Below, in pieces: positions 1 through 61,577 of a stretch of 64,000 bases of DNA. The stretch comes from Candidatus Absconditabacterales bacterium (GTDB lineage: Bacteria; Patescibacteriota; Gracilibacteria; Absconditabacterales; Absconditicoccaceae): NCBI GenBank assembly GCA_937923605.1, contig CALDTY010000010.1, positions 1 through 64,000 on the forward strand. Reading direction: 5' to 3'. The notes below the pieces were generated by a model, which did not search any database, was not told the origin of the DNA, and was given only the letters and a program-made list of their open reading frames with translations. Within the stretch, counting starts at the first letter, position 1. Every line of letters begins with the position of its first letter. Position numbers and translations under genes: made by a program.

Positions 1-695
1 ATATATGAGAGCTGTGTTATAGAGAAGTCAGTTAGTCAGATTAGTTTCTGTAATTCATTCAAGGTAAACAGATGATAAAATCTGTGATACATGATATTAT
101 TCTGATGATATTTAGGATCTTTTCGTGGTATTGATAAATCGTTCCAAGCTTTGTTTCATACAGTAGCTATCGAGAGTGGGATTGCTTTTGCAAGTGAAGT
201 CCAATATTTCTTAAGAAACCAATCAGAAAATGACCAATTTACAAGGATGATAATACCTCAATAGGTTAAAGTTCTGTAAAGGTTATGTAATACTAGTAAT
301 CTATCTTCTAAGCTAGTAAGGTGATGAAATGATGCAAGACAAAGCACGCAATCCACTGATTGTTGCTTTTGTTGTTGGAGATAACTTATCATATCCTGAC
401 ATACAAACATAGCATCAGGATACTGCTCTTGAGCTGTCTCTATCATTCAACTTGATATATCTACTCATGTATATGTATATTTGCATCAAATATCTTCAAG
501 TCGTTTAGAGACTCTTCATGCACCACATCCTAGGTCTAGAAATTCTAAAGAATTTCATGTTTGTTGTGAACATTGCTCTAACAACAGGGGCTTGATGTAC
601 TCTAATTCTGGTCGTTTATGTATTCATCTTGTATGATGAAAGTGTAATGCTTGAGCATCATAACAAGTTGTTAATTCTTCTTGGAGTCTAGTCAT
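1..695 (-). CDS. TRM9/ALKBH8-like SAM-dependent methyltransferase (3' end cut by window)
   Basis: Class I methyltransferase read on the minus strand with UGA as Gly; 231 residues are visible and the C-terminus lies outside the window. Seen: motif I LDLGCGAGR at about residues 53-61, the acidic end of strand 2 in TGVDISSGM (about 76-84), and CLASFHHL at the motif IV/post-I region. The N-terminal HFHHTRGIHKRPEL and the C-terminal RFYHLFTLNELQKL resemble the TRM9/ALKBH8 family, which methylates wobble uridine modifications in tRNA. The family-level substrate is inference; it could be another small-molecule or tRNA methyltransferase. I chose the ATG at 695 because the homologous region begins there. 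It lies inside the last codons of the upstream exonuclease gene region (that gene stops at 704), so the two are probably co-transcribed. Confidence 0.8.
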
Positions 696-703
696 GAAGT
701 AAG

Positions 704-1711
704 TTATCTGAAAAAACCACTTTGAGACGTTTCTGTGTCTTCTGTGCTTTGTAATTGTTTGGATCATCATCGTTCAATCATTTGTTCAAGAGTGAATTCT
801 TTAGATTCTCATTCAATATGAATCTTTTTATGTTCCAGTAAGTATAAGAAAACTCCTAAGGTGATACGAACATCATTTTTACAATAGTTTTTAACTTTTC
901 TTAATAATTTCTCGTCTCATGTCTCTTTCCAATCCTGCAAAAGCTTAGATCATTCTGCTCAAGATTCCAATGTTTTTCACATGCTGACTAATGATTCAGC
1001 AACTTTAGTAAGTTTTAGTCTTCTTTTTAGGAGTTTATGTAACAGTAAAAAAGGATCAATAGATTTCATATTTAGTATATCTAACTCTGTTTGACCGTAT
1101 CAAATGTTTTGTATGATAACTGGATTATCAAATCAAATGTGATTATAGCCAATAATCCATCATGGATATTCTAACAGATAATCAACATAACGGTGCATAC
1201 TGACTCTATCTATATAATTATATTGTAATCATTTAGAAACATCTTGTGTAGAGACTGAGTATGCCATTTCAAAATGCTGAGAGGACAACGATTCTCAAGT
1301 ATATGTGGTTTCAATATCGTACGTAACAAATGGTTTATCCATGATGAATTGTAAGTCTCAGTTCATGCATTTCTGAAACAATCATTCTATAATAGTCTTA
1401 TTTTCATTTGCTGCCTTATTAACCAAGCGCATGTTCTTAAGTATATTATGTACTTGATTTATTCAATCAGCATCAGTAATTATTTCAATCTTGTCTACTT
1501 CGTCTACTAAACGAAATTCAGTATCATTTTGTTGAATTCTAAACAGGGGACGTCAACTATTGAAAAAGTAGTGTGATTGTGATTCATCTAACATCTTGTC
1601 CATAAATTCCTGAAAATGTGTATATCATTGTTTACTAAAAATATCATGAACGTTTTTGAAAAATCATGTATTTGTCTCCTGTAACTGATTAATAGTCATG
1701 CGTTTATACAT
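704..1711 (-). CDS. DEDD-type 3'-5' exonuclease-like protein
   Basis: About 335 residues when UGA is Gly. The C-terminal two-thirds shows the three motifs of the RNase H-like DEDD exonuclease fold: YDIETT (Exo I, about residue 131), GYNHIGFDNP (Exo II, about 189) and YCKNDVRIT (Exo III, about 276; YxxxD form). The roughly 130-residue N-terminal part is not recognised. Related stand-alone domains are annotated as predicted exonucleases or as domains next to helicases; no helicase part is present here. The ATG at 1711 is the first plausible start; a TTG at 1849 is also open but encodes unlikely hydrophobic sequence just after a TAG. The stop at 704 leaves only 8 bp before the methyltransferase ATG. 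The substrate is unknown. Confidence 0.7.
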
Positions 1712-3595: not shown

Positions 3596-3689
3596 TTTGA
3601 GAAATACACGCGCTAGAAAAAATAAGTATTGAGTCGATCAGATGTCTTTGCCATCTATTGATTGATGCTATATTACAGATCAAGACTAA

Positions 3690-3718
3690 TTGACAAGAGA
3701 TTTTTTTATAAGTATACT
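3690..3718 (+). promoter_or_regulatory. Sigma-70-type promoter before ABC subunit 2
   Basis: TTGACA at 3690-3695 and TATACT at 3713-3718 with a 17-bp spacer, a near-consensus vegetative promoter. Transcription would start about 25 bases before the ATG at 3750. It gives the second exporter gene its own promoter in the 154-bp gap after the first. Confidence 0.65.
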
Positions 3719-3749
3719 TAATAAGTAGTATTTTTTTGTATATAACGTG

Positions 3750-29112: not shown

Positions 29113-32100
29113 ATGCAAAAACTCAAAAAATATTTCGTGAGTAGCATTATATTTTTATACCTTATCTCGACCTTTACTCAGACAAGTATATTTTGGCTTG
29201 CGCCAAAAGAAGTCTATGCGCAATCTTGATGATCTCATAGTAATATTGCAGCAGTATTAGTGGATACAACTATTTATGATTCTATAAGTTGAGATTTATC
29301 TTGGTATGCAAACACTTATCTTCCAAAACAACAACCTTGAACTGAATTAGTAGTGTTGCCGCTAGACCCATCAGGATTTAACGCAGATGATGTTTATCGT
29401 ATTCTTGAAAATTTATATTTTGACTGAAAGAAAGACTGAGGAAGCACTCTTGTTTGAGTTATAATCTTTTGAGAAATTCCTTTGCCTAGTATTGAAGTTG
29501 ATTGAAAACCATTTTTATCATTGCATCCCTATACAGATTTTGAAGGACCACCTATGTTTACTTTCAATGAATGACGCTGATTACGATTACCTAATTGATC
29601 TTCACATTCACAACCTGAAATTCGACATTCAATAATTCCAACAAACAACGTAGCAGTATTTACAAAGTTTTTTCAAAAGCTCAAAAAATATCACAACGAT
29701 CCAACAGAATATGCAACCTGACAAATTTGGTACGATGACTATGAGTTGATGCAAAAATCTTTCTCTAATGAGCAGCTGGACGAATATATAAACACTTTAT
29801 TGTTTGCAGAAGATGTAAGTTATAGAAGAATAAATAGTTCACTTACCGATGTACTTAATTCAGAATATGCAGAAGATCTTCTGTGAACTCTAGAGGTAAT
29901 GGAAGAGAAGTATGCTGAATCTGTTGCTCAATGAGTTCCTGATGAACTTACTCACCCTAAAGTAGATGGTGTACGTACAAGAATTGATACATGAGTATCA
30001 ACAATCAAAAACTTACTTTTCCCAAAAGATTGAGAAGTGAAAGAAATCTTGAGTAATTCGGAAGACAGTCCAATTGCTGCATCTAAGAATCCAGTTCCAA
30101 CATTGATAAATGCAAAACAAAATGAAAACAATTTCCGTGAACTTTTTTCAGTTTATTGAGACGAATATTTCTCAACCTTAGAAGATAATCTTTCTGCTGC
30201 ATGAAGATATGGAATGAAAACAGTAGACAACACATTGGAATTTATTCAATTGAAAGATCTTGTAGCAATGTCTTATTTGAAAGACATTAATACAATATTA
30301 GAGCACGCACTTGATGACAAAATACAGCAAGAACAGTATATGCTCAAAGAAGCCCTTCCTACCTGGTATGAAAAACGAAAGAGTGATGATATTTTAACTT
30401 GTTCACCAGATTGATGATCTGAGATTGATTTAGATCTTCCTTGATTTTGAGTTAACCCTGTCTGATCTAAGTTTCTCAATGAAAGATATGAAAATTTCTA
30501 TTTTTGAAAATATGCTTGAGATGTGCAACAATATGATGATTTACATGTATATAGAGGTGACTGGAGTAATCTTGATGCGACAACATTAATTAATTCACCA
30601 ATTGCAGTGCGTTCACTTGAAGATATACCGTTTGAATGGAATAAAACTACAATTTGAGCATCTTTTTGATGATTTGCTCAACAAACAAGATCAATGAGAT
30701 GAACTAATTTTGATAAATGATGAAAGGAACTCGAGTTATATAACACATTTGAATGTGAAGATGATCCAAGAGAGTGGTCAAAGTATTTCCGATGATGATC
30801 TTCTCAATTCAATATAGATCCAGAAAAATTAGAAGCAAACGCAAAAGATATAAATTTTGATCCAGAATTTTATGATAGAACCTATATGCGGCATCCTACC
30901 GTAAATAGAGCGATATGATGACCCCAATATGATCCTGCAGGAGCAACTCTTATGATGGAAAATGAATTTTGAGAGCCAACAATATCTGCTTGAAATAATT
31001 TCTTTGATTGATTTTCAGTTCAATCAATTTGAGAAAATTTAGAAGTGAATAACGCAACAATTCCAGATTGTGTACCCTTAGAACAAGATGATGACATAGA
31101 CAACGATGGCTTAGCAAATGATGCAGAGGAAGAGTTAGATATTGATGGAGATTGAATATTAGATACAAATGATGGCGATATTGATGGTGACTGTATTCCA
31201 AATACTCAAGATGATGATATCGATGGAGACTGAGAAAAAAATTGAAGAGATAGTGACTGTAATGGAGGTGGCTGAAATTGTGGGCAAGATAATGATGACG
31301 ATAGTGATGGAATTCCAGACGACCTAGATACAGATGATGATAATGACTGAACACCAGATGATCAAGAACCAGATCAAGATGGTGATGGAATCATAGATTC
31401 TGAAGATCCAGATGATGACAATGATTGACTCGAAGATGAAGTAGATCCAGATGATGACAATGATGGAATTTTAGATGAGGATGAGCTAGATAGTGATGGA
31501 GATTGAATTCCAGATGATGATGATCCAGATGATGACAATGATGGAATTCCAGACAATCTAGATACTGAAAATAACGTTGTCGTGCCAATGATTACGGCTG
31601 ATACCTTGCATCTAACTGCAGCTAAAGATTTTTCTGAAGTAGTTAAAGTAGATTGATTAAGTCGCTTTGACTATACAAGAGTATTAAAGCCGTTACTCCC
31701 ACAATTCGTAAGAGCAAAAAGAGAAAAAATGTATTGTGAAAATAGAAAAGAAAAAGACGACTATCCATGACTTTCACCATATGAAGAAATAGATTTCTTC
31801 CAGGTCTGGGAAAATGAACTAGTGGAACAAGATACTAAAAAAGTGATTTCTGTATCACAGAATCCCATAGAGGGTTGAGGTTGAGTTGATCGTTTTAGAA
31901 AATCTGATGTCGCAACAATTGAAATAGACGATGCATGAATGATGAAAGAAAATTGGAGACCACGATTTTATGAACAGAACATTCCAAGTTGAACTGAATT
32001 TTTAAAAGATTCAGATGTAGATAGAATTCCAGATATTTTCGATTATGATTTAGATGGTGATTCTATAGAGAATGAAGAGGATATAGATATTGATAATGAT

Positions 32101-35100
32101 TCAATTTTAAATGTAAATGATCCAGATATTGATGGAGACTGATTTTTGAACTGGTTGGATAAAGATGTTGATGGAGATCTAGTAGATGATGAATTTGATT
32201 GAGATGCTGATGGAGATTGAGTGATTAGTGATGATCGAAATGATGAGTTTTCAGATAGTGATGAAAATGACACAGAACAAGGAGATGAAGATAAAGAATG
32301 ATCAAAATGCGGTGGATGATGAAGTTGTGGAAGATGATCGAAACAAGAATCTTCTGACGAAGAAGTAGACCCAATTTCAGATGAAGAAGAATCAATACCA
32401 GAATTAGAAGATCCATTTGACTATGAAGTACAAAATCTAGCTAAACAGATAGAAACCTTAGAAGAGAATTTCACAAAAGAATATTTAGTTATTGAGCTTT
32501 CAGATAGTGACTGTCAGTACTGTATTGATCAGGCTGACAAAATTAATAATGATCTTGGTCTTCAAAGTCAATTAACAAACACTTGTGACTTTTTGGTCCT
32601 TACTCCAAATTGAAACTTACGTGATTGGGTGACTGAGGTATGAGCTCAGACAACATTTGTATGATGAAAATCTAGAGAAATTACTGAGTGAAATATTCGA
32701 GACTTAGAGACGATTTTTGAAGACTGAAGAAGTGCAGCTGGAATGCCGCATACATTTATAGTTGATCAAGAATGAAAAGTGGTAAGTCGCGCGATGGGTT
32801 CATTGCCACCGGACTTAGATTCATACTGTCCAGTTGATAAGAAAAGTGCTCAAACTAACTCTTCGATACTGTGATTACTTTCCAATCCAGTATATGCTCA
32901 AGATGAAGATCCAGATGAAGAAGAATGTGTTCCATTGGAACAAGATGATGATATTGATGATGATGGAATTCCAAATCAAGAGGATTATGATGATATAGAT
33001 GGAGATGGAATCCCAAATGATCAAGATGGAGATATAGATGGAGATTGTATTCCAAATACATCTGATGAAGACATAGATGGAGACGGAAAAGAAAATGGAA
33101 AAGATAGTGATTGTAATGGCAATGGAAAATGATGTTGATCAGATAATGATGATGATAGTGATGGAATTCCAGATGATCAGGACAGTGATGATGATAACGA
33201 TGGAACACCTGATAATGAAGAAGGTGATAATGATAATGATTGAAAGATTGACTCAGATGATGAAGATGATGATAATGATAATATTCCAGATCAAGAAGAC
33301 GATACCCCATTTGGTGAAAACTGATGAGATGATAGCTGAAATGAAAGCTGAAATGATGATTCAACTTGATGAGGTGGTGAATCATGAGAAAATTCAGGCA
33401 GTGAGAACGGAAAAGATGATCAACAAGAAAGTGGTGACGAACAAGGAAATACGTCAAGCAATAATGAAACATTTATACCAGGACTTCCTTATAATGTAGA
33501 AGTCAGAGAAAATACATGTGATGCATTAGCTTGATGATTATGAACATATAGAGAATGGAAATACCGAGACTATCATATTATTGATACAGTTGTTCAACAT
33601 AAAGCTCCAACAAACACTATGCTGCACCAATCCAATGTGTTAACTATGGCTAGACCAATAGATGATCCAAGGTATACTACATTTCATGGAGTGGGTTGAG
33701 ATTTAGTAAAACTGGTATATGCTGATTTGTATAATATTCCAGTATACGATGATTGATGAATGTTGCTTGAAGAAAAAGCAATTGAAAAAAATGTTCGTAC
33801 ATACTTCACTCAGAAAACACAGCAATTTAATAAACAGTTGCAGGACCAACTACAAAAAGCTCCATGACATTATGCAAAACATGCGAGTGCATATGATTTT
33901 CTAGCTACAGTTCATAGTTCAGCAACACCAAATCGTTCATATTCTTTATTGCCGTCATGATTTCTTGAGGATCTTGTGTGAGAAGAACAAATCCAACGTA
34001 TAGCTCATTCTTTATATTATCTTGCATATCCGTGGGAACAGAGACCTTGAGGTTCAACAGTTGACGAGTTTTTGAAAAATGCGAGAAAAGAATTTAATTT
34101 AGATCGCAAGATTGAATACGTATCTGAATTGTATTTACTTTTAAAGCCGTGATTACCAGAGAAAGAAGCAGATGATCCAGTAATTCTTCCTAGATATATA
34201 GATCCTAATTTAAATCGAAAAGAAAGAAAAGCATACGAAATTTGATATATAAATTCCGATGGAAAAGATGGGATGCCAATTTCTAATGATACATATACAA
34301 CATATACTATACCAGATGCGTGATGAAGTCAGGCTCCAATTTCTTCTTTGATTCCAGATGTTTGATCATTCAATGAAGCTCGCACCAATGCAGAAAGTAT
34401 TGCCTCTGCTGAAGATGAAGAGTGTAATGTCCCAGATTCATGAACAGTTCCATTACTGAAACGACCTAAAGCCTTTAAGTGTCGATTAAAGCAAACTTGA
34501 GAGAAACCAATTGAGTTTGATATAAATGTTGGAGTAGAAGTGCAAAATAATTTCCTAGAAAGAATGATTATTGATTGGTTATGATCAGAACCCTCTGACA
34601 CCACATCATGAATGTTAGGAAAGGAATATTTGTATTCTTTTGAGAAACCTCAACCTTTATTTTGAGAAGTTTTTGCTCAGGAGGTAGAAGATGTAATGGA
34701 AGCGCTTAACTTTTGAAGTTTTGTACGTCTTGAACCAAGCGATGTTTTTTCACAGAACAATGATGTTGAAAATTTCCTTGTAATATGAAGCGATCGTGAT
34801 TTATGAGAGCTGTCAGTATCAGTCTCTTCTACTTGAGAAAATCAAATTATAATTAATTGATCAGATATAAGCACTACATCACTTGACTTAGATTTACTGT
34901 TAGATTGAACTCGTGAAAAATTACCAATTCGTATACAATGATCTAATTCTTCACCACAAAATATTCTTGTAAAAATTTGTAAATCATCATCTTGTGTCGA
35001 GAAATCAGTAACTTCATTTATGAGTCCATGATCGCTTGATCAGATATCTATAATCACTCCTTCATCTCAAGTGCCTAAATGATGAGCTATCCCTATTACT

Positions 35101-38100
35101 TTGCTCTGAGGTGATGAAAATTGAAATCCATTACCATTTGCTCCAAGTGGGACCACCTTAGTTATTCAATGAGGAACACTAGAAAACTGATTATCTTCAA
35201 GAGAAATTTCTAACATCACCAATGATGTACATATGATATTTGCAGACAAAGATGCCTCATCTCTCAATATGCGTCTTGAAAATGATTGAGCGATTTTATG
35301 ACAAAAGACACTTCCAATACTTGATATACAAGCAAATTTTCAGAATCAAATTGTGTATACATTGCCACAAAAAGAAATTTGATTTAAAAACAGAGATTGA
35401 ACTTATACAGAAGATCGTCTTCCTAAAATTTTCATATCATTTGATTGAGCTGATAAGAATTTTATCTTACCAATCAAAGTTGAAGGAGCAGAACATTTGG
35501 TTCGTCATTGATCAATTAAAGAAGATTGATCTTTTGACCAAAGTGCTGAGGCTATAGTTCAATGAAACGAAGTATTTCTACCATTATTGCCTACGTGAAA
35601 AACCTGAACTTCTGAATTAATTATTACTTTAGCTGGTTTAGGTAAACAAATTATTCCAATCACTATTAAACCAAGTTGACCAGACGAACTTATTTTCGAT
35701 ATACCTTCTGATTGAGTGGATCCATGAGACATCATTGAAGCAAATGTTAGTATTTTTGACAGTCGATGAAATCCATATACTGACCCAATTGAAGTTGATC
35801 TTGAGGCAGAAGGTGCTCGAGAAATTGCACGTGATGTAGTAGTTGCAACATGATGAACTGCTGCATTTACATGAGTTGCAAAACCATGAGGTTGATCATG
35901 TTGAGCTTCCTGAAGTTGTTGAGGATGATGAGGTGGTAATAGTTGATCTGATTGATCTACAAGCTGAGATTCATGAGGAGAATCGTGAGATGGTGATTGA
36001 TCTGATGGTGATGGATCTGATGGTGATGGAAATAATGAATGAGATGATTCGAATAATGAGGGTGAAGAGGGCGAAGAGGGAGAAAACGAAGATAATAAAG
36101 ATGATAGCGAAGATAAAGATGAAAATGATAACGAAGATGAAGATCAACAAGATGATGGAGAAGATTGAGACGGTTCATGATGAGCATGATGATCTTGACG
36201 CACTCAATGAAGTGCTAGTTTTTCTACCAACAAAGTTTTGTGGCCAGATCAACGAGAACCCCAAGAACTAAATGTTATGTATTTGAATCTATATTGATCT
36301 AGTCGATGAAATGAGGCGCGTATAATTGATATGCTTAGAAATGAAAAGACTCTAGCAATTACAACGACTCGCAAACTACCATGAGCCTCTATTTACGCAG
36401 ACAAAAAAACAGTATTTGATATTGATGGCACTAGAAATGATGAAATGGAACTTATTAAGAATATGACTCTCGAAGGAGAGCATGTTTGGGTGAATTTAGG
36501 ATATAACTGATGAGTATGACGTTATTACATGTGAACAACTGATCAATTGTGATTATCAGTAAAAAGTAAAAAAGAATGACAGAAAGAAAGAGACGATCCA
36601 GATGTTAAAATAAAGAAAGTAAGTTCAAGTTGTTCACAATCTAAGAATCAAATCTTAATCAATAAAAATCTTATTTGAGTAGATTTTGAATTCTGATTTA
36701 TACATGATGATGTAGATATTGTTCCTGCAGAAAAAACATGAAAGACATGGAATATAATGTATCAAAATGAATTAATTGCAACATTTGAGTTGTTGCCTAA
36801 ATCATGAGCATCACTTGATATTGATTTGTCAGACGAAGTTGTTGAAGTGACAGCTAGAACATCTTGATCTGTGACAGTTGAATTCAAAGACATTGGAGCA
36901 GTTGACGGAGATGTGCCTTTTTATGAATGAATAAGTAGTTCATTTAATGCAAATGACAATCTATGATTTAGACACGATTTTAACTGAATCACAAATTTTT
37001 CACAATGATTAGCTGTTGGTCCAGCAAATCAACGATTTGCAGATCCATTTTTAGTAAATATATGAGATCCATTTCTAAAAAGAATAGAAGCTAGTGAAGC
37101 AGTGCCTCAAACAAAATTTGATGCAGGTATTTGACAGCAAATATATGCGTCGAGTGAAACTATGTTTAAAGTTGAAACAATGGATGTTGATTGAGATGGA
37201 AAATTAGATCTCGTGCTATGATATAATGATTGATCTCTAAGAATACTCAAGAATTATGGATGATGAGAACCTTATTCAGATTTATGATCTCTTACCGTAA
37301 TTGCTGATTGACTAAAAGATTTCTGGCCAGGAGATGTAGATTGAGATGGTGATGACGACATTTTAGTTCTAACCAACGCAGAGAAACTGAGAGCGTATAA
37401 AAATGATGATTGAGTTCTTGAAGTGGATTGACGACCAGTATGTTTAGATATACCAAACTGAGAATACAGCAGTGTTAGTCAGACTAATCAATTATTTGTA
37501 ACTGATGTAGATGGAAACGATATACAAGATATTGTCACTTATGCTGTAGATTGAGAAATTGAAGTTTTTTATGGGTGAGGTGATAGTTATATCTCTACGG
37601 ATTCATTTGAATGTGACCCTTGAGCAATCTCTAGAAATAATAAAACACTACTAAAATCTATGAAACTTACAGTATGAGCTGACTTTAGCGATAATAGTCT
37701 TATTCATTGGTCTTGACTTGAAACTCCTAGTGAAGAGCCCGCACCACCTGAGTGATATGATCAAGCGTGAGAATCATTATCATCTGACTTGCCTGATGCA
37801 ACTACAGAAGATGAATTTAATCAAATAATTGAAGATATTAAGCAAGAAAAAATTGATCAAGTGCAAAGTATTGATATAGATTGATTGATTGACGATGGTA
37901 AGGATAAAATGATTGATTACATTATGGCAGCACCAGTGTCATTAAGACCCCATGCGGAAAAAGATAACGAAGAATATGCATTTATGCGTGCTCAAGACAC
38001 CTTAGAAACTTCTCTAGCAAAAGCTAAAGTAACCAAATCATTAAGCGATAATAATTGATGATATGTTGAAAAATGAGATATTCTTACTGTCACGGTAACT

Positions 38101-41100
38101 ATTGCAGGATGAGGAAATATAGATTACTTGGAAAGATTAGATATTCCTGTAGTCATATATAAGGATGAGTACAATAGAATTATTTCAATGCAAAATTGAT
38201 TATGATGAACTATTGATTGGAATATAGGTCAATGATATGAGTTTATGATTCAATGATGATCCCCTGGGTCGTTTACATACGAAGTAATGTATAACTGAAA
38301 TGGTCATGCTAGAGTAGAGGTCGAGACTGAAATGGAAGAAGTATTTGAGCATTGAGTTAGTCGTACATCTCGATTAGGTTCTCCGGTATATGCATGATCT
38401 GCAAAAGCAATTAGAGTATATCCTGATGACTCATGCTATAAATGATATCGAGAATTCGACCCATGAGAAGAATTTGTTAATTTACAAGATACCTATGAAC
38501 AAAAGAGAGACGTTTTTGTGAATTATTTTGAAGCTCAACGTACTGAATTAGAAGACAAAACTACAGATTCAAATCTAGATAGAATCAAAGAACTTATGTG
38601 AATACATGAGGTAGATTTCGATGAGCCACTCATGGAAGTGATTAATGATGTGTTAAAAAATGTTCCTGCTATATGAACAGATGTAAATGTTAGATTTGAT
38701 GTGTGAGAAGTTGAATTATGGTGAGTGAGTCTAAATGAAATGAACGATGTAATGCAGAGTGTATGAAACACTTTATGTAAATGAATTAAATTTGGTGAAA
38801 CTAATTGTTGAGGACTTCCGATTCCATTTAACATGTCATTCTTGTCACCAGGAACGATGAATGTATTTGGATGTAAATTATTTGACGATCCAGGGCTGCC
38901 ACTAGTAGCATTTCCTACAACAATTCCTACCTGAAGAATTAGTAATCCTGCTCCAATTCCATTTTTCCGGCCTTCTATTTTCCCAAAATGAGCTTGATGA
39001 TATTTTGATTATAGTATCTGAAGAAAGAAATGAGAATTTGATGTTAAACAGAAAGTTGATCCAGAGCGTACGTATGAATCTTATTTTAGACTTTATGTAT
39101 CACCAACTTTAACAAATTGAGTTGGTATCGCTATGTGTTTTGGAAAATATGATTCGATAAATCTTCCTGACCCATTATGAGATGTAGTATGAAATTGTAT
39201 TGTTATGTGAGCACCTATACCTGGGATGTGTGATGATGATGGAGATGCATATGCTAATAATAAACATGATTGGTCCACAACAATTGATGATAAAACAAGA
39301 GATTTACAGCAAGTAGGAGTTTGTGATCCAAGTCTTCAGGCAAGATCTCCATTCTATTCTACTGCAACACAGAATCCAGTTGCTATGGAGTGAAAACCGA
39401 ACACTGTCATAGCATCAGCACATTGATCAAGTGAAAATTACAAAGAAAGTAAGAGATCTTGATGATGATGGTGATGAGCTACAACGACACAAGATTTACT
39501 AACTTTAGATTCTGAATATACCCTTAAGTGATGAACAGCCTTTGATTTGGAAGTTCAGTGATGAAATGTGAAATGAGTCACTGAATGCATTATCAGAAAG
39601 CGAAAAGACAAACAAATAAGATATGTCGCTAACAATATGTTAAACATGCAAGTTACACTTATATTGCCTGATCTGAAGGCTGTTGGTGAATGATTTTCGG
39701 AAATAGGTCAGATGTCGAAAGAATTTGATCTAAAAAAATGATGGAAAAAATTAAGTTTTTATCAATGAGATTCTGAATCAGTTTGAACGCAGGAGACGCA
39801 TAAAGATTCTGAGACAACTGTTGAAAAATTATTTATGCCAAGATGAATCTTGAGAGATTTAGAAGATAATTTTTCAAATCCTTTTGATCAAATCGCAAAT
39901 TTATTTGAAAACACTCCATTTATAAATGTGAAACAAAGACGTGTACGTATGCAGATACCTCGATTATTTGAAGAGGATATTGCTAGATTTGAATTGGAAC
40001 GAAAATCATGGGTAAGTAGGAACCAAGAAATATTAGATGCATGGAAGAGATGAGATTTTGAATGAAGCCAAGATATAGAAGATGAGATGGCGAGAGCTCT
40101 TGGAGATGTAAAAAGAAATCTAAATACGATCAATGAATATAAAAAATTACCAAGTGTTTTATATGACTATATACATTCACGAGATAAGTATGTGCTAGAA
40201 GTATATGATTTTTCCGAAGATATTGTCAAACAATTAACTTGATGGTTACAAGTAAATGCTAATAGATACTCTGCATATGTGGATGCAATTATTCTTATGA
40301 TCTGAATTATTGAAACATGGCAACCAGTGATAGATTTCTCAATCAACTGGAAAACTAAATGTGGGAAATGTAGAGTAGATAACTATGATTATTATTCATG
40401 CAAGCTTAGTCTTCTTTGTGTTGATTTACCTGTCTTTCCAATTCCGCCATTCAAAATTCCAGATATATATATTGATTTATCACAGATACGTTTAGGAATA
40501 GATATATTGCTTCCAAAGTTTGTCTTTTTGCCTGAGAAGATTTATTTCCCTGTACTGCCAGATCTGCCAGATCCGCGTAATTTTGAATTAGAAATTGATG
40601 TTGAAATACCAGATATACCACAACTTTCATTGCCACCTCCTTTACCACAACTACCAGACATAACACTTGAAGCAAATATTGAATTACCTAATCTACCTCC
40701 AGCTCCTGAGATTCCAGATTTGATTCCTTCTGTTAAGAAAGTTATAGATATCGCTGATATTATTGGTACTTTCTTTTGTATCTTCAAGTGATGAATCTGA
40801 TTAGTGACTGAGCAATGAGTTAAATCAAGAATTGAACAACTCACACAAAGAACATGGTCAGTGTCTCCATTTGATTCAATATCAATTACATTGCCAGATG
40901 CACCAGTGGAGTGATACGACTATCATATTGATGCATTTGTTGATCTTAAAGTTAGTTTTGACGAATTATATAATGTTTTTGATGAGATTGCAGATACTGT
41001 GAATGAGTGAGTATCAAAGAAGGTAGATAAACTTAAAGAATTGAATAGGAAAGCTACGAATACACTTATTAATCCATGAGGAATATGAGAATTTTTGAAC

Positions 41101-44100
41101 TGATGAAAAGTAGAGTTAGATCTTGATCTTTGAGATTTAGATAAGTGAGATCTATGATTGAACTCAGGACCTTCTCTTCCTATCTTTTCTCGATCATCAC
41201 TTACACAGCAACAGAAAGACTATCATAACGTTGAACACAAATGATGATCACTACAAGACTCAAAAGAAAAATTGATAGAACAATTTAGTTATATTCTTTC
41301 AAATGAAGAGTTTGAACTATATCATGATGATATATTATCATTGCATTCATTTATTGACTCAGATGCTCAGGTTTCACCTAACTATACATCACTTAATGCA
41401 GCACATCAAGGGTTCAAAGATATGCTTAGTAAAACAAGAGGATCAATCAATGAGATGAAGAATCTTATAACACAAGATTATGATCAATTTGTGAAAACGT
41501 ATGTCCAAGATCATATCTTATTAAATGCTGATGAACAAGATGTATTTGTAGATCAATTTGATGTGCAATTATTTACTTGAAATCAAAAAGTAATTTCAAC
41601 TATTACTCAACAAATACATCCAACCGAATCTTATATCAATTTGCATAAACCACTAATAGAGGGATACCAAAATGCTTTAGAAGAAAATTCTGCTGTAGAT
41701 TTACAAATGACAGAATTGGTTTACGACTCATCTAAAAGATATATTGATTGACTAGCAGATAGGTTTATATGAGATGAGAAGTGAATGATTCTTGCTCAAA
41801 CATCTTGAAATAGAAATGATGAGTTAGTCGATGAAGAAGAATGTGTTCCACTTCTACAAGATGATGACATAGATAACGATTGAATACCAAACCAACAAGA
41901 TATTGTAGATATAGATGGTGATTGAATTCCAAATGATCAAGATGGTGATATAGATTGAGATTGTATTCCGAATACAACGGATGAAGATATTGACTGAGAT
42001 GGAAAAGAGAACTGAAAAGATAGTGACTGTAACTGAAATGGAAAATGATGTGGATCTGATAATGATGATGATAGTGATTGAATTCCAGATGATCAAGATA
42101 ATGATAACGACAATGATGGTACTCCAGATGATCAAGAATGAGATAATGATAATGATTGAATCGATGATTCAGAAGATGAAGATGATGATAATGATTGAAT
42201 CCCAGATCAAGAAGATGATACTCCATTTGGTGAAGATGATGTTGGAGATGAGTGAGATGAGAGTTGAGATGAATTATGATGATGAGCATGAGCGTGAGCT
42301 ATAGAAAATTTTGCAGAAAAGACAGGATTTGAACAAATTGATTTTTCTCAATATATCGATTGATTTTTCATTAAATGAACAGATGATAAATATCATAATG
42401 TTGTATGACGATGAGAAAAAATCAAAAAAATACAAGATGCTTGAACATATACATTTGTTGATCTCAATGGTGATTGATGAGTAGATATTCTTTCGCGAGA
42501 TGGAACCAATATTTATGTTAAATATGATAGTCAAAAGGATGCATATCCATGAGCAAGTGCATGATGAATGACAGTTATATGACCTTGGTCTAGTGTAGAA
42601 GAGTTAGAAGAGGCTGCAAAAAAAGATAATGGATACATAAGTGGTTTTAAAGTCCGAGATTATTACCGCACTCATATTAGTTTTTCAAGAGAGTGAAATA
42701 ATTTTGAATCATTATGATTTGCTCGAGACAATGATCACAAAGATTCTTATCTTGTGCGCCTTTCAAGAAACATTTCTGTGCAAAAACAGAAGAGTTGAAG
42801 CGTATGATCTACTTGATCTGAAGAAATTAAATACTTACTGATGGTTCCTGAATGAATTGAATATGAATGAGTTTATTTGGAAGTACCAGATGAATTATCA
42901 AAAAAGAAGATTAAAGACCACGTGGATTCTGAGGATATTATTCAAGTTTCTTTCTATGATTGATCTACCGAAACTTTGAGTGCGATATTAGAAAACTTAG
43001 ACCCAGCAGGATGGAGATATGCTAAGGTTTCGTCATTACGTCTTGAAAAGAATTCAACACTATTTTGAGGATCAAGTCGATTATTTACTCCTGCATCAGC
43101 ACGATCAAGACAAGTGGTAGCGTGAAATCAAAAATGGGGTGATGATGCTCAACCTTACTTAGGTTTAGAGCTTATTAGAAATAAGACATGAGAAAAGTTC
43201 CCATGATCATCTGAGTTAGGCGGATATGTTCTTACTGATTACACTCTATCATGACAATGGTTAGATAATTGAAAAGTGCTAGAAAATCGAATTGAGTATG
43301 ATAATGAAATTATATATTTTGACGAATCAGATAAGTTGTTGTTAGAGAATCTTTATTATAAAGAACCAACTAAAGAACATTTTGTATTTTGATCAATTGA
43401 TCAAGCATGAAATAAAACGACAATGGAAGTTGAATTAAATATCATTGCTCCTGAAGTAAATATCACAAACATTAAGGACAAAGGATCTTGATATGACATA
43501 GAGACAGAAATGTCTGCTACTATAGATGATTGAAAAATAGCTTTTTTGAGAGATAGATATTGATGGCGAGAGGAAATGAATCCTTTTACCTTTCCAGTGA
43601 AGCCAACAGATCCTAAAGTGACAGGGTGAATATACATCACCGATGACGAAATTGCACTAAAAGATTCAGATTGAAATACTAAATGTAACTGTAATGCTAA
43701 AAATTGAAAAATAAGTATTCCAGCTACTACTTGACCAAATGAGAACGGAGGTTGAGGAGTTTCTACATTAAATTCTTGAGATTGATGATCTCAAAAATGA
43801 GTAGCTAATAATGTCGAGGTTTTAGTTGACTTCTTACAGCAGTCACCTGAAGTTGCTGTCATAGATAATGATACTGAGCAAACTATTTTTAGAATCTGAT
43901 TTACTTCTCAAGAACTTGTTTCTTTAGGTATATTGGACTGAAATTATGAATCTCGTGTGTTGGAAGACAATAGCTTATGATTGTCATATATTTGATGAAC
44001 GTGTATTGGACCAATAGATTGAGAATGTCACATGTATGTATCACCTGACGGAAATCTTATTATACCAGAACCTTATAATAGTGAATATATGGCTGAGTAT

Positions 44101-44199
44101 TGATACGATGATGAGGAAGAAGCTGTGATATATTATATAAAAGATGCACTTTGAAAGCCAATTGTAGAACTTCGTTTTATTATTGTACCTCTAATTTAA
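29113..44199 (+). CDS. Giant secreted multidomain surface protein (5,028 aa)
   Basis: I read every codon line: there is no in-frame TAA or TAG over 15,087 bp, provided UGA is Gly. N-terminal signal peptide (hydrophobic stretch FVSSIIFLYLISTF, cleavage after a VYAQ-like site near residue 37). In order: an unrecognised region to about 650; acidic Asp/Gly-rich repeats of the thrombospondin type-3 or EF-hand-like calcium-binding kind at about 650-820, 968-1060, 1263-1400 and 4242-4376; a thioredoxin-like domain at about 1117-1240 with a CQYC pair (Cys 1134/1137) and a MPHTFIVD cis-Pro site; a Gly/Asp/Ser linker at about 2257-2370; FG-GAP-like repeats near 2691-2836 and 4443; and a Pro-rich segment near 3771-3876. 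The C-terminus looks beta-rich, without LPXTG. Likely an adhesin or surface scaffold; the exact role is unknown. The first gene of a co-directional set that includes VirB6-like proteins. Confidence 0.9.
31060..31575 (+). repeat. Acidic Ca-binding-type repeat array 1 in the giant gene
   Basis: Repeats of the form DxDxDGxPD with D at metal-ligand positions. It starts with CVPLEQDDDID, contains DGDCIPN and DSDCNG, and continues with many DDDNDG units. The same Cys-containing order recurs in arrays 3 and 4. Confidence 0.85.
32923..33306 (+). repeat. Acidic Ca-binding-type repeat array 3 in the giant gene
   Basis: Begins CVPLEQDDDIDDDGIPN, then DGDCIPN, DGKENGKDSDCNGNGKGCGS, and DNDGTPD units, ending near DQEDDTPFGE. 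Corresponds almost residue for residue to the array at 41842-42231, about 2,970 residues further on. Confidence 0.9.
41842..42231 (+). repeat. Acidic Ca-binding-type repeat array 4 in the giant gene
   Basis: Begins CVPLLQDDDIDNDGIPN and follows the same order as array 3, down to DQEDDTPFGE. At DNA level it uses many UGA Gly codons where array 3 uses GGA, so the two copies are old enough to have diverged in codon choice while the protein stayed similar. Confidence 0.9.
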
Positions 44200-44202
44200 A
44201 TA

Positions 44203-45186
44203 ATGAGATTTACAAGAAAGGAAAGTTTGCTGACAGTTATAATCTTCATATCATGTATGTGGACATGAATTTCATTTGCTCAAGATTGATGAGACTGTGG
44301 TTTATCTTTTTGACCTGAAGAATTTAAAGATGCAGTAAATGAAACGTTCACTTCATTAAAGATGCCTCAATTATTCTTTACTGATAATCAATTAGAAGCA
44401 GTGCAAATGTCGTTAGATACGTATTGTTGTAGGACGGACAAAATTTCTAAAGCACTTTGTGAAAAGAAGACATTGTATCCAGACGGTAAGAATGTTATTC
44501 ACTCACCATTTTATTTGGATCACTTTCTGTCTATTTATAGACTGTACCTTAGAGGTGATGACGTAGTTTGCAATACATATGATTTTGATTGTTTTGCACG
44601 TATTGATGACGAGAAAGGGTATCCATGAAAATCACTTTGCTTTAGATTCGGAGAGGATGGTGATGCTAGATGTAAATCTTTATATGATGTTTGATCTGGT
44701 GTAGATATACTATGAGCATCAACTGATATTAGTTCTCCTTCAAATTATCGAGCATTATATGAAAAATTTTGGGTAAATGCAGATAATGCATTGATTCCTT
44801 CTGCACAAGAAGCTAAGAATATGGACCCAAATGATCTTACAATTCTACATATGTGACATTATATGTGCAATGAGGTAAATATGATTTATAATCAAGTGCT
44901 GAGGACTAATACAAGTAATGATAAATCTATGAATCCTATACCTTGAAGTACTCTGCAAAAATGTCGTACATCAGCAATGCAGTATTATAAATCAAATTGA
45001 TTTGATTACGTTAACGCATTGAGTCTAGCGAAATGAGTTGATCAGATGAGACAAATAAACGAACAAAGTAGAAACCATGTACTTGATGTCATGTGAGATG
45101 TAAAAAAAACCATGGTATGAATAAGAACAAAAATGACGAATATGTTAAAAAAATTCCCTTCCTTTACTAATACTTGTAGTGCATAA
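44203..45186 (+). CDS. Exported Cys-rich protein, unknown
   Basis: 327 residues, not recognised. N-terminal signal peptide (basic MRFTRKE, hydrophobic LLTVIIFISCMW, then a SFAQ cleavage-type site). The mature part has about a dozen Cys, several in pairs or close spacing (TYCCRTDK, CNTYDFDC, CRTSAM and a terminal TCSA), which fits disulfide bonds outside the cell. No membrane segment besides the signal. The gene starts 4 bp after the giant gene's stop and its own stop overlaps the next start (TAATG), so these genes are very likely one operon. The thioredoxin-like domain of the giant protein could serve such Cys-rich partners; that is speculation. Confidence 0.8.
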
Positions 45187-46922
45187 TGAAATTATTTTTG
45201 AGATTTATCTTAGTACTTATTCTCCTTACATCAACTAATTGATGGACTTTTTCTCAAAGTGAATCACAAGATTCTAATCAAGATAAGCAGTACAATTTAG
45301 AATGTGGAGATAAAACTCCAGCTTGTAATGACACTCCAGAACAGATCAAGTTGTATCTTAGTACTATGGACGCTATCCTAAAAATTATAGATGAAGTGCC
45401 ATCTGAAAGAGATGAAAATGATACTAAAGAGAAAGATTTTAAACGAGTCACTGATTCGGCATTTTCAAAAAGATTAAATTTGAGTTCTTTTATTAGTGAT
45501 GCATCTGATACATTGTTTAACTGGTGATGAGTGTTTGATGATTACAGAGCTATGGAAAAATGGTCATCAACATTTAAAAGAGATGCTCAAAAATTACAAG
45601 ACATGAATTTTAAAATCCTTGATATTACAGTTTTAGAACAGAAACAACTATTAAAGAAAAATATACCTAAAGATATCTACGAAAAAATAAACAAGGAACT
45701 TAAAAAAATAAAGTATATTACTTTTTGAGAAACTGGTGGTTCATATAATATGGAAGTGGCATGAGAGAAATATGAGACTCTTATTATTCTTCTTTCCCAG
45801 ATAAATAAAATGTACTCTGAATTGTATCAATTACAATTTCAATCGAATATATTTAAAAATTTGTCTTCGTCATGATTTCTATCTTATGTATATCCATGAG
45901 ATACTACAAAAGATAAAATTGATTTAGAGTCATTATGATTATTAGCAAATTGGATGAGAGATTTTTTGAGTAAAGTATTCGTGAGACCATTTGAAGATAT
46001 ACGTAATAATGTAAAACAAGAAAGCGAATATGTAACTATTGACCATAAAGAATTTTTACTATTAGTTCGGGAACTAGAAAATGCCTATAGATGCACTCAC
46101 TGAAAACAGAATGTGTGTGATGATTGAACTAAGAAAACTAGAGATAAATTTAAAGAATTATTTACTGAAACATTGCAAAATGATTCAGAAAAATCTTGGC
46201 ATAGAATACAGGATGCAACATCTCGTTTGAAATGAGCTTTATTTTGATGATCTGTAGAAGACAAGAAGGCGGCAGAGGAAAGAAAGCAATCACTTCTAGA
46301 GTGAAGATATTGAGCCTGATGAAAACCTAGTGAACGCTGACCAATACAGTCATTAAAAGCTTTTGGTGCACAACTATTAGAAGGCGCAAGAAATAGCGTT
46401 GATCCAGCAAAGAAGTACTTTAACAAAGAAGAATCATATTCAGAACAAACAAACTGAAGTCAACAAGTGTCGACTGCAACACAATGAGATGCAAGTATTT
46501 ATCATGAAAATGAAGATAAGTATAGTGGTAGCTCAAAAAAGAAAGATGCTCTTGATTGAGTTTTAGCTGGAACTGAAAATAAAATATATGATAGCTGAAA
46601 AATTATTCAAACTGAGAACCAACTTCAACAAAATCAGCTTCGTGTGTTAGAAAATAAAGTAAAGACTATTGTGGGATCTTTTGATAAGTATGCTTGAATT
46701 AAACAACGTCAATATGAAAGAGATCTTCTCTATTTGGACACTAAAACTATGACTAAGCAAGCTGTATGATTAAGTATATATGTCCATGCGGCAGCGAATC
46801 GTTTTTGAGACTACGATAAAGATCCTGAGTCAAAGTATGTTTCATCAAATGATTCGTTATCAAAAATGTGTGAAGCACAGTGTACTAATTTATGATCGAA
46901 AAAATGTAGAGAAGATTTATAA
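45186..46922 (+). CDS. Exported helical protein, unknown
   Basis: 578 residues, not recognised. Signal peptide MKLFLRFILVLILLTSTNG, with cleavage probably in the following WTFSQSE. The mature protein is largely helical and charged, with a Cys pair near the start (LECGDKTPACND), one in the middle (CTHGKQNVC) and a C-terminal cluster (MCEAQCTNLGSKKC). A low-complexity Ser/Asn/Gln/Gly stretch lies around residue 410-450. Translationally coupled to the preceding gene by a 1-bp overlap. No enzyme motif. Probably an envelope or extracellular component of the same apparatus as its neighbours. Confidence 0.75.
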
Positions 46923-46925
46923 AGA

Positions 46926-48398
46926 ATGGTTACGAGACTGCTACTTATATCTTTACCACTTATGATGATGAAAACTTTATTTCTTAGGTTACAAATAAGT
47001 ATATGAACGTTGCTGTTCATGCTTTTTGTTCCATACGTAAGTTTTGCTCAAGATGCGTGTTTAACATCTCAAGCTGACATTACAGAACAATTTCTATGAT
47101 CTTTGTTACATGAAGATCAAGAGAATACAATCGTATGAATTCTTGTGGGAAATAAGGATACATCGATCCTAAAGAATAGATTAGTTGAATATTATTGTGA
47201 TACTTGGTTACAAAGTCATGGCACAGCTAAAGATTGAATAAAAGATATGGTCAATTGGTGTGTAGACACAAATAATATGAGATTCGACCCAAGACAATCT
47301 TTGTTTATGTATGGCTTATGTGTATGATACGATGAGGCACACAAATGAAAACCTACATTAGTATCACAAAAACAAGAGAATTATATCCATAGAGATTGGA
47401 AAAATGAAGCATTTGCAAAGATTCAGTATACATATAAGACAACGAGTAAGGGTGAAAAATGAAAAACAATTAAATGAGATATAACAGATTTTATACCAGA
47501 TGACAGTCAAGATGCAAAATTGTTGCAGAAATGGCGAAAATTAGATAAAGAAAATGATCCTTGTCAGCCTGAGTCTGGAATGTCTGAGTGTCTTATGTGA
47601 TATCCGACGAGCAATATTTTGAAAACAGTTTTTTCTGGACTTTTTGATTTAAAAAAAGCAGCAATTGACTGATTTAATCATTGAACTGATGAAGAAAGTA
47701 TAGTTTTATCAATCAAAGATTTATCAATTTCATTATATGATCAACTTTGACCAGAGAATAGTGTTTGTAATAACCCAGATAAGCAATACTTAATGAATCA
47801 AGATTTTTGATCAACAGATAAACAATCCCATTGTGGTCATCTAAAAACCCGAGGGGAAGTCAAATGAATTATTAAGGCAGCCATTAAAGATGTCGAGTGA
47901 ATAAAGGAATTGAATGGAGTAAAAATTGCTGAAGCAGAATGTACATGAATTAGAGATTCTTTGATTCCATGTGCCATGAGTAATATGGAAGAAGGTACTG
48001 AAGGAAAAGAAGATATTATTTTTGCTAGTGAAGAGTGGTCATGGAGAAATCTTATTTTAAATGAATTATTCTTCGCTGACATGCGAATTGAGTTTTATAC
48101 TATGATTATTCAATCTGAACCAACACGTCAATCTCAGCAAGCATGAAGCGTTCTGGATAAGAACGTTAGAATTGATTTTGAAATACAGTCTATGAAAAAA
48201 GATTTTGAGCTAATTGAAAAAAGTGCAGATAGATTACTAAATATGTTATGACAGTATCGTACTATGTATCATCAATGTATTACGCTCAAGGCCTATCAAG
48301 AAGACCTCCATTACTATTGGTCAAGAATTAATAAAACATATACCCCGTTACATCAACTACAATATACTACTGAGGATGCTCAAGAACAAGGAGGTTAA
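46926..48398 (+). CDS. Exported Cys-containing protein, unknown
   Basis: 490 residues from the first ATG; starting at the ATG at 46968 instead gives a cleaner signal peptide (MKTLFLRLQISIGTLLFMLF, cleavage near SFAQD), and this start may be the real one. Mature part soluble, with scattered Cys pairs (WCVDTNN, DPCQPESGMSEC, NSVCNN, TECT-like EAECTGIRDSLIPC) compatible with extracytoplasmic disulfides, and a long helical C-terminus. No known domain. It starts 3 bp after the previous stop. Same layout (signal peptide, Cys pairs, helical end) as its two upstream neighbours, though the sequences are not obviously alike. Confidence 0.75.
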
Positions 48399-48427: not shown

Positions 48428-50734
48428 ATGAATAGCAGCAGAGTTTCACTTATTTCAATCTGAATATTCCATATATGATGTATCATATTGCTTTTTTTCT
48501 GATATTCTATTGCTGCTACAAATCCAGAAATTGATACACGTCTTTTATTGCAAGATAGGGTATTAGAAAACAAAGATGCCTGAGATAGAACTACATTAGT
48601 TGATAAAATTGTAGATGGTCGTTGACTATTTGAAGCGAGTTATTCTTTTGAAATATATAGCCAAGCTCTTACGCATTCAAATACTATTGATAGTATTTTT
48701 GATCATCTAACAAATTACATGGAGTATTGTCCATGATGAGTTTTATATACGAAACAGGACGCAGAACAGAATATGCAAAAGGAAGTTTATCTTCATCCGG
48801 ATCCCAGAACAAAAAAACCTGTCCCAATCACTCTTACAAAAAAGGATGTTGTAAATGTATATACTTTGTCAAAAGCATGATTATGAATATTGTGAACTCT
48901 TAATAACGAAAGAGTTTTTGATTTTGCTCAAGTAAGTGAAACTGATAAAGCTTTCCTTGAATCATGTAAGTGGATAGTTTCATGTCAAGAATGAATTTCG
49001 AAATTAAATTACGATTGAACAACTATTAAAGAAAATGAAATTCCACCAACAACTGCTGTGGAGAGAGATCAGTGTGAATCAATTGTGACAGATCTTTTTG
49101 ATATTTATAGTGCACAAATTGGTTTGGGACTTGAATACGATACTAACAGAGATTGGGAAATCTATTATAACAATATTTTAGAAGAAGATCGCTGACAGAT
49201 CTGTGACGTTAATCAAGAATTAGAAAAGGTCGGTAAACTATTATGAAGTACAGTTGAAGATTTACCTAAATATTCATTTTACGATCCTCAAAAAGTGAGT
49301 AAAAATTCCAGTTGATCATATTCATGAGCATGAGATGATGACGAAGTAAGACTGCCATCAGAATATGAATCAGAAGAGGAGGAAGTTCCTGATGAGTCAT
49401 CATTTGAGAATAGTATTGAAGATATTCCTTATAATAGTGTTCCAGATGAAACTATAACTAGGGAAGTAACTTGAGACTATTTGTGATCTGCCAACAATTG
49501 AAAAAAAGTCGTTGGGCCTTCGTGAGCATGATGATGAAACTCGGATCGTCTTGTCGCTAAACCAAAAGAATGATGACTTTCATCTTTAATAAAAACACCT
49601 AAACAAGCAAATAGTGATAAAATATGATGAGTATGAGTGATTCAAAACCCACAGTGTGAAGTAGATGAATTGTGACCTGAAGATAAAGATATTGATCTAC
49701 TCAAGGAGTCTTGAGATTTAACCGATACATTACAAAAATATTGAAACGACCTTGATAAAGATGAGCGCTTGTCTCAAGCTCTTGCAAACGAGAAACTTCT
49801 TACAAAGAAAGAACAAGAAACACATAATATACAAGACGAACCAGTTATTACTGAAGATGAGTTGCAAGAAGACTTAGATAACTATTTAAATTGAATGGCA
49901 AAAATCGATGAAGAAGATACGTTATCTACTTTAGAACAAATGGAAGGTGATATTAAGTCATGTATAACAGAATTCACAGATGAAGATGAATGATCACGAA
50001 GAAGTCAGTTGGCAAGAATGATAATGTGAAGCTCAGAGTTAAGAGAATGTTTAAGGAAAGTGTTCTGTAAGGAAATTGTTGATCCCTCTTGATTATGAAT
50101 TTATCGTATCAGATTTTGTAGTAGAATGAATAAAACAGTAAGCACCCCTACAACAAAGAAAGTAAAATCAATATTGGATACACTAGAAACTGTGTATACA
50201 GTTTTACATTGAATGACAAGCAGTTGACGTATGGTAAAACATAAGCAGGCTACTGAGGCTTTAGAGTGACAAATTGCCGACATAAAGTTTAAAGATATGT
50301 TTTCATTTACAATCAATGTAATTAAGAACACCCCACGTACAACATCTGATCCTAAAGTTGAGAAAGAGTTGATTCTTCAAGAATTGCAAGACATTAAAAA
50401 AGTAACGATGAATGAATATGAAGATTTAAGTGTTTTGTTTCCGTTTATAAACGATGCTACTATGTATAATGAGTCTAGAGTAAAAGCAATAGAGCAAGAT
50501 TTACAAATTTCTACTGATTTTAAATGATCACTACAAGAAGCAAATGATATTATTTGAGAACTAAATAGATCAGGTGATTACTTGTACGACCATTACCGCC
50601 GCATGACAACGTTTGAACAAATTCAACATGGAAACATTATTATGGCAGATCATATTGAGTTTTGGCGTGATATGTTAAGCTTAGCTGAAGAACTTAGATC
50701 AGAATTAGAAAAACATTACAATAAGATGAAATAA
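48428..50734 (+). CDS. Large exported or membrane-tethered helical protein, unknown
   Basis: 768 residues, not recognised. A hydrophobic N-terminal segment (SLISIGIFHIGCIILLFFGY) could be a signal peptide or an anchor. Next come a soluble helical part with Cys pairs (SCKWIVSCQEG, QCESIV), a disordered Gly/Ser/Glu-rich middle (about 290-400), an acidic helical stretch, a second hydrophobic-free domain with CLRKVFCKEI and a long helical C-terminus. No catalytic motif seen. Fourth in the row of exported proteins after the giant gene, 29 bp after the previous stop, and so probably part of the same unit. Confidence 0.75.
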
Positions 50735-52114: not shown

Positions 52115-52117
52115 TTG

Positions 52118-60953: not shown

Positions 60954-61577
60954 TTATAGACTTTCAGATCAAAATATATCATCTAATATATTCATAAGTC
61001 CTTCAGCTCAATCTAGGTTTATTACATCTTTGTTTGTTATTTGTTGTGATGCTATATAGAACCAAGTTCACATTTTTTGTCTTGTTATATTGGTTGTATT
61101 TACTCATTGTAGTGATTCACCTTGAATAATTCCTAATTCTTGACCAGCTTCATAGTAATATTGTCGCCAGTAAGGACCAGTTTCATCTAAGAATCCATAG
61201 AGAGATCTAACAATGATAGTAATTGCTTGAGCTTCTGTAATAAGGTTGTTTGGCATATATCTACCTTGTGATCATTTTATGAGACCATAAGCACATGCTT
61301 CAGCAATATGTGGAATAAGTGTATAATCATATCATTCAATATCTGAGAATTGACATTGAGTATAAGATTTACTAAGCCCTTCTAGTTGTGCATACTGATT
61401 AACAAATTTTGCAGCTTCACCTCTTGTAATAAGATCATTTGGTCTAAAGTCTCAGACAGTATCATATTTTGTAAGACCTTCTCCGTACATCCAATTTAGG
61501 ACTGTAGTGAATGATTGTCCAAATACAGTAGAACTGATAAGGATACCGCTACATAATAGAGCAACTAATTTTTTCAT
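60954..61577 (-). CDS. Small SLH-domain surface protein
   Basis: 207 residues. Signal peptide KKLVALLCSGILISSTVFG. The remainder is built of about three SLH-like units, visible as DFRPNDLITRGEAAKFVNQY, then CQFSDIEGYDYTLIPHI and ACAYGLIKGSQGRYMPNNL, and a third less exact unit near RQKMGTWFYIASQQ. SLH modules attach proteins to wall polymers. No other domain, so it may itself be a minimal S-layer anchoring or wall-binding protein. Seven of about 21 Gly codons are UGA. Confidence 0.8.

What the first reader, a model, noticed from the sequence alone, without database searches (positions are those of the whole stretch)
29113..44199. A single 15.1-kb gene for a 5,028-residue secreted protein
The frame was read line by line and holds no TAA or TAG. 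Giant proteins of this size in a small Patescibacteria-type genome are a heavy investment. The domain mix (Ca-type acidic arrays, thioredoxin-like fold, FG-GAP-like repeats, Pro-rich part) is unlike a simple adhesin. It may be a main surface structure for attachment to another cell.
Basis: partly seen in the sequence, partly recalled or inferred. Interest (0 to 1): 0.85.

Follow-up and report, generated by a model that had tools for sequence, protein, structure and literature searches.

The report
Class-wide giant surface protein, Gracilibacteria
The 15-kb reading frame is real: it encodes this species' version of a giant secreted surface protein (roughly 3,600-5,900 residues) found across most of one class of ultra-small, probably parasitic bacteria, and in many relatives it sits beside the genes for type IV pili, which suggests that it helps the cells contact other cells.

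Summary
Observation confirmed. Frame 29113-44199 (+) is open only if TGA=Gly (table 25), gives 5,028 aa (554 kDa, pI 4.2), and changes between relatives by codon position (0.33/0.18/0.50) as one coding frame should. It is not an oddity of this genome. Orthologues occur in 248 of 353 genomes of its GTDB class: nearly all of Absconditabacterales and most other families, but none of 80 genomes in two families, and none of ~343 sampled genomes elsewhere in the phylum. Standard-code relatives carry it as one uninterrupted ORF of about 3,700-5,850 aa, so it seems older than the code change. Backbone: signal peptide; gingipain/caspase-like fold without a conserved catalytic Cys; helical domain; Ig-like region; FG-GAP propeller; Cys/Pro-rich core; C-terminal region. 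The acidic Ca-type arrays and the thioredoxin-like domain are young insertions (37 DxDxDG motifs here; 0-3 in other Absconditabacterales). At least two of four downstream secreted genes are conserved partners. In 14 of 19 standard-code loci (10 families) a type IV pilin gene lies 1-4 genes upstream, and SLH domains anchor some relatives to the surface. Best reading: a surface-exposed, pilus-linked contact scaffold or adhesin. Function is inferred; this lineage shows neither pilin linkage nor a known anchor.

The parts
29113..44199 (+). giant gene, 5,028 aa (table 25)
29113..29226 (+). Sec-type signal peptide, res 1-38 (hydrophobic stretch then VYA-Q)
   Evidence: hydropathy; by inspection, no dedicated predictor run
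29233..30912 (+). conserved N-terminal domain, res 41-600; first ~200 residues predicted gingipain/caspase-like alpha-beta fold; class-wide motif GxVxxGDxPLP...PYxDF...EIWHGxI
31060..31602 (+). acidic Ca-type (TSP3-like) array 1, res 650-830; genus-level insertion, absent from one same-genus relative
31990..32232 (+). acidic array 2, res 960-1040
32440..32862 (+). thioredoxin-like insertion, res 1110-1250 (CQYC, GMPHT); weak profile matches only; also in same-genus G020
32920..33312 (+). acidic array 3, res 1270-1400
33550..34392 (+). conserved D2 domain, res 1480-1760, mostly helical; may complete the gingipain-like fold
34750..35892 (+). conserved beta-rich region, res 1880-2260; Ig-like by position (Invasin_D3/Big_1 hits in orthologues)
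   Evidence: inference by position
35950..36192 (+). acidic Gly/Asp/Glu linker, res 2280-2360, lineage-specific
36910..37662 (+). FG-GAP beta-propeller region, res 2600-2850
   Evidence: PF13517 E 3e-12
37990..38382 (+). beta domain, res 2960-3090; DUF11-like by position
   Evidence: inference by position
38710..39192 (+). conserved Cys/Pro-rich segment, res 3200-3360
39910..41052 (+). core, res 3600-3980: helical stretch, four Cys, Pro-rich extended region; best conserved part, basis of HMM A1
41845..42312 (+). acidic array 4, res 4245-4400, lineage-specific
42310..44196 (+). conserved C-terminal region, res 4400-5028; no anchor motif found
44203..45186 (+). d1, secreted, 327 aa; starts 3 nt after the giant's stop
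45186..46922 (+). d2, secreted, 578 aa; overlaps d1 stop
46926..48398 (+). d3, secreted, 490 aa; probably the +2 gene of standard-code relatives (E 3.6e-5)
48428..50734 (+). d4, secreted, 768 aa; homologue of the +3 gene of standard-code relatives (prob 98.4, E 4.8e-14)

Best explanation
A lineage-defining, secreted, surface-exposed giant scaffold/adhesin of the class Gracilibacteria (GTDB sense), encoded with small secreted partners and ancestrally linked to the type IV pilus locus. SHOWN by sequence: one intact coding frame, class-wide orthology in both genetic codes, a conserved backbone with young Ca-type and thioredoxin-like insertions, conserved partner d4 (and probably d3), pilin linkage in ten standard-code families, SLH domains in some orthologues. 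PREDICTED: an N-terminal gingipain/caspase-like fold with no conserved catalytic Cys. INFERRED mechanism: exported through Sec by its signal peptide, held at the envelope (SLH in some relatives; in this lineage by an unknown anchor or through d1-d4), projecting a string of beta domains, an FG-GAP propeller and a Pro-rich rod outward so that, together with retractable pili, the cell can dock on a neighbouring cell. The acidic arrays would stiffen or retune the rod in a Ca-dependent way.
For: Signal peptide and no strong internal TM, only marginal hydrophobic stretches in the core. SLH, Invasin_D3/Big_1, FG-GAP, TSP3_bac and DUF11 in standard-code orthologues. Class distribution: N-domain 240/353, core 227/353, either 248/353; phylum sample outside the class 0 of ~343. 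d4 homology and co-occurrence with the giant: both 208, giant only 40, d4 only 12, neither 93; outside the two families lacking both, Fisher p 1e-4, uncorrected for relatedness. Pilin 1-4 genes upstream in 14 of 19 standard-code loci, with T2SSE (5e-127), T2SSF (4e-56) and N_methyl (7e-11) confirmed in G279. PilB/PilT-type ATPases matched in all 49 genomes of the order, though only weakly (1.5e-4) in the window's own. Type IV pili are reported to be needed for host adhesion in Patescibacteria (PMC12102498). Vampirococcus has a fibrous surface and giant membrane proteins up to 4,163 aa (PMC8080830).
Against: No function has been measured. In table-25 lineages no pilin gene was seen next to the giant (window, G002, G006, G065, G124 and six shorter loci), and the own genome gave no N_methyl pilin hit, though it is 83.5% complete and TGA codons weaken such searches. 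No SLH or other anchor in the window's protein. Pilin neighbourhood could reflect co-expression only. d1 and d2 match their positional counterparts only weakly.
Confidence: 0.55

Rival explanations
1. Envelope structural protein: a main S-layer or wall scaffold that shapes and protects the cell, with no specific role in binding other cells.
For: SLH domains in orthologues; near-universal in the order; a separate SLH protein in the window; secreted partners.
Against: Genus-to-genus turnover of inserted modules and pilin linkage fit contact better; complete absence from two families of the class (80 genomes) means it is not a required wall part there.
Confidence: 0.25
2. Pilus-tip protein working like PilY1/PilC: carried on the tip of type IV pili and presented by pseudopilins.
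For: Position directly after pilin genes in ten families; a large secreted protein with a propeller in a pilus locus is the PilY1 pattern (PilY1 from general knowledge).
Against: No Neisseria_PilC (PF05567) match; the four following genes have signal peptides but no FTLIE pilin motif; SLH domains point to the wall; linkage missing in table-25 lineages.
Confidence: 0.12
3. Active surface peptidase or sortase of the gingipain/PorU type that processes or attaches other proteins.
For: Predicted fold: best structural match RgpB, Z 11.4, rmsd 2.4 A over 128 residues; PorU 8.2; Kgp 7.9.
Against: No Cys is invariant or nearly invariant in the N-domain or D2 in 26 order-level rows or in 20 class-wide N-domain rows; the only near-invariant His follows EIW.
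Confidence: 0.03
4. A predation weapon delivered to or acting on the host cell rather than an adhesin.
For: Two cultivated members of Absconditabacteria kill their hosts (PMC8080830, PMC11452946).
Against: No toxin or enzyme domain found in the window's protein; SLH in orthologues ties it to the producer's own surface.
Confidence: 0.05

Closest known systems
Giant membrane proteins of Candidatus Vampirococcus lugosii (1,392-4,163 aa; PMC8080830)
   Same: Same wider group of bacteria, large, surface, integrin-type and other interaction domains reported
   Different: Described as a set of large proteins in one genome; no class-wide orthology, partner genes or pilus linkage reported in the passages read. 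Whether one of them is the orthologue was not tested.
Huge proteins (>5,000 aa) enriched in Cand. Peregrinibacteria (PMC11573180)
   Same: This family yields ORFs above 5,000 aa in standard-code members of the class and may account for part of that enrichment (inference)
   Different: That survey gave no function: none of those proteins was assigned a COG
PilY1 / Neisseria PilC type IV pilus-associated proteins
   Same: Large secreted protein with a propeller, encoded with pilin genes in ten families
   Different: No PF05567; far larger; SLH in some orthologues; partners are not pilins
Gingipain / PorU family C25
   Same: Predicted alpha-beta fold of the N-domain
   Different: No conserved Cys; no class-wide sequence match to PF01364
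Giant adhesins of other bacteria (for example SiiE, LapA)
   Same: Size, secretion, acidic Ca-type modules
   Different: Not built of one repeated Ig module; Sec signal peptide; no type I secretion genes seen next to it

Membership tests
Peptidase family C25 (gingipain/PorU) | caspase-like alpha-beta fold | tested here: met
   AF2 model of the L072 orthologue (pLDDT 70): RgpB Z 11.4, rmsd 2.4 over 128 residues, range 6..846; then PorU 8.2 and Kgp 7.9, with other folds at 6-7. Foldseek E 0.03, prob 1.00. Predicted, not solved; the D2 part of the range is low confidence.
Peptidase family C25 (gingipain/PorU) | catalytic Cys-His dyad | tested here: not met
   no conserved Cys in N-domain or D2 nor in 20 class-wide N-domains
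Peptidase family C25 (gingipain/PorU) | sequence match to PF01364 | tested here: inconclusive
   1 of 26 order-level members at E 0.0028; none of 20 class-wide N-domains at E 0.1
PilY1/PilC | Neisseria_PilC domain PF05567 | tested here: not met
   not listed for the window protein at E<=1 nor for standard-code orthologues at E<=0.05
PilY1/PilC | encoded with type IV pilin genes | tested here: inconclusive
   met in 14 of 19 standard-code loci in 10 families; not met in the window or other table-25 loci examined
SLH-anchored surface proteins | SLH domain PF00395 | tested here: not met
   no hit in the window protein; hits in orthologues G288 3e-16, G303 2e-5 and G279 1e-13 / 3e-11
FG-GAP/integrin-type propeller proteins | FG-GAP repeats | tested here: met
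   PF13517 3e-12, PF01839 1e-6, best stretch res 2691-2752
Bacterial TSP3 repeat PF18884 | profile match | tested here: inconclusive
   window arrays give no hit at E 0.05-0.1 despite DxDxDG at 13-residue spacing; orthologues hit at 2e-30
Type I-secreted giant adhesins (RTX/SiiE type) | ABC/MFP secretion genes adjacent | tested here: not met
   neighbouring genes scanned in Pfam show none

The most novel reading that the evidence does not exclude
The giant, its secreted partners and the type IV pilus form a previously unrecognised contact apparatus that defines this class of host-dependent bacteria and is needed for docking on the host; the gingipain-like domain has been turned from an enzyme into a structural or recognition part.
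Probability: 0.3. Interest if true: 0.8.

Novelty: new variant of a known kind. Interest (0 to 1): 0.62.

Why it matters
How these ultra-small bacteria attach to their hosts is largely unknown. A single orthologous giant in most of a class, with a conserved gene neighbourhood and partners, gives one concrete target to test in cultivated members, and may explain part of why Peregrinibacteria rank among the bacterial phyla richest in proteins above 5,000 residues. It also gives a very long natural test of table 25: the same protein is written with and without TGA.

Tried and rejected
Assembly or frame artefact: rejected. PDB sequence searches with the N-domain and core alignments gave only chance matches. 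The core model was poor (pLDDT 48) and its fold search meaningless. NCBIfam found nothing useful. Split C25 domain with D2 completing the fold: suggested by the aligned range 6..846, but the last part is low confidence, so kept as a hypothesis only. Pilin in the own genome: none found; the weak ATPase place on contig C1 showed no pilus genes around it. The organisms behind the unnamed G handles, including the two families that lack the gene, could not be named. Consensus promoter and terminator scans were uninformative.

Full report
WHAT WAS CHECKED. The frame 29113-44199 (+) is exactly as described: 5,028 residues, open only under table 25 with 327 TGA codons. The other frames of the same stretch hold at most 461 codons without TAA/TAG. 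Same-genus relatives differ from it by 0.33/0.18/0.50 at codon positions 1/2/3, in every 500-residue bin covered, as expected of one protein-coding frame under selection. TGA codons fall where relatives have Gly nearly as often as GGN codons do. The window is contig C10 of a 1.31-Mb, 83.5% complete genome, of the Absconditabacterales judging by its named relatives.

HOW WIDE IT IS. The N-terminal 640 residues match 45 of 49 genomes of the order, 26 of 26 good ones, and the middle part 44 of 49. Profiles of the core (A1) and N-domain (A2) match 227 and 240 of 353 class genomes; either one 248. None of 80 genomes of two families (f15, 74; f10, 6) has either. In even samples of the phylum no genome outside the class matches (about 343 genomes). 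The lists behind these counts were typed from the tool tables and reproduce the printed totals 240, 227 and 220. In standard-code families the same gene is one ORF without TGA, for example 5,849 aa in G303, 5,617 in G304, 5,496 in G237, 4,066 in G288. The gene therefore probably predates the TGA reassignment (inference).

ANATOMY. A 26-sequence alignment separates a conserved backbone from lineage-specific insertions. Backbone: signal peptide, res 41-600, 1480-1760, 1880-2260, 2361-2440, 2600-2850 (FG-GAP), 2960-3090, 3200-3360, 3600-3980 (core, mostly 38-50% identity over the order), 4080-4240, 4400-5028. Insertions: acidic arrays at 650-830, 960-1040, 1270-1400 and 4245-4400, an acidic linker at 2280-2360 and the thioredoxin-like domain at 1110-1250. 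The window protein has 37 DxDxDG motifs; 28 other Absconditabacterales giants (L072-L105) have 0-3, six standard-code ones 5-22. Same-genus G020 lacks the first array but has the thioredoxin-like part. Standard-code orthologues also carry DG-rich Ca-type runs between the N-domain and D2, so this site takes such insertions repeatedly.

N-DOMAIN. The AF2 model of the compact orthologue L072 (pLDDT 70) is closest to gingipain RgpB (Z 11.4), then PorU and Kgp (Foldseek E 0.03, prob 1.00). No conserved Cys exists in the N-domain or D2, so a working C25 protease is unlikely. The fold is a prediction.

NEIGHBOURS. d1-d4 follow with gaps of -1 to 29 nt, all with signal-peptide-like starts. By profile comparison d4 is the +3 gene of standard-code relatives (prob 98.4, E 4.8e-14, 539 columns) and d3 probably the +2 gene (E 3.6e-5); d1 and d2 are weak. 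d4 co-occurs with the giant (208 both, 40 giant only, 12 d4 only, 93 neither); the two families lacking the giant lack d4 too. Relatedness was not corrected for. In 14 of 19 standard-code loci with readable upstream sequence, in 10 families, a pilin gene lies 1-4 genes upstream on the same strand; in G279 Pfam confirms T2SSE, T2SSF and N_methyl. Five standard-code loci (f6, f7, f33 twice, f34) and the table-25 loci examined lack this linkage.

SURFACE. SLH domains are found in G288, G303 and G279, beside Invasin_D3/Big_1, DUF11 and TSP3_bac. The window's protein itself has no SLH or other recognised anchor.

LITERATURE. Six searches found no paper describing this family, its partners or its pilus linkage. 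Known: giant membrane proteins and a fibrous surface in Vampirococcus (PMC8080830), large proteins up to 3,861 aa, several predicted extracellular, in Peribacter (PMC4736985), and enrichment of Peregrinibacteria for proteins above 5,000 aa (PMC11573180). The library is open-access only, so absence there is weak evidence of novelty.

CONCLUSION. An ordinary kind of thing (a giant surface protein) with an unusual degree of conservation, a conserved gene neighbourhood and an ancestral-looking link to type IV pili. Surface exposure is well supported by relatives; the role in host contact is inference.

Noticed in passing
window 60954-61577 (-): A small secreted protein with two SLH stretches (PF00395 3.3e-10), suggesting this organism has an SLH-type surface layer although its giant has no SLH.
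   Followed up: partly
window 52115-54814 and 54829-56688 (+): Two polytopic membrane proteins, similar in layout to each other, looking like VirB6/TrbL-type proteins by eye; no Pfam support. A 2025 survey reports VirB6 homologues scarce or absent in Gracilibacteria (PMC12102498).
   Followed up: partly
class families f15 (G150-G223) and f10 (G138-G143): 80 genomes of the class lack both the giant and d4; whether something replaces them is unknown.
   Followed up: no
N-terminal regions of giants in L122, L125, L128, L141, L142, L144, L148: Recurrent DG-rich Ca-type insertions after the gingipain-like part of the N-domain in several standard-code families.
   Followed up: partly
L152 and L153 (family f33): A ~1,790-aa protein lies directly upstream of the giant in both; not identified.
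   Followed up: no
window 50781-51992 (+): A calcineurin-like phosphoesterase gene (PF00149) follows d4 here and in G002, and lies downstream of the giant in L072 and L088; role unknown.
   Followed up: no
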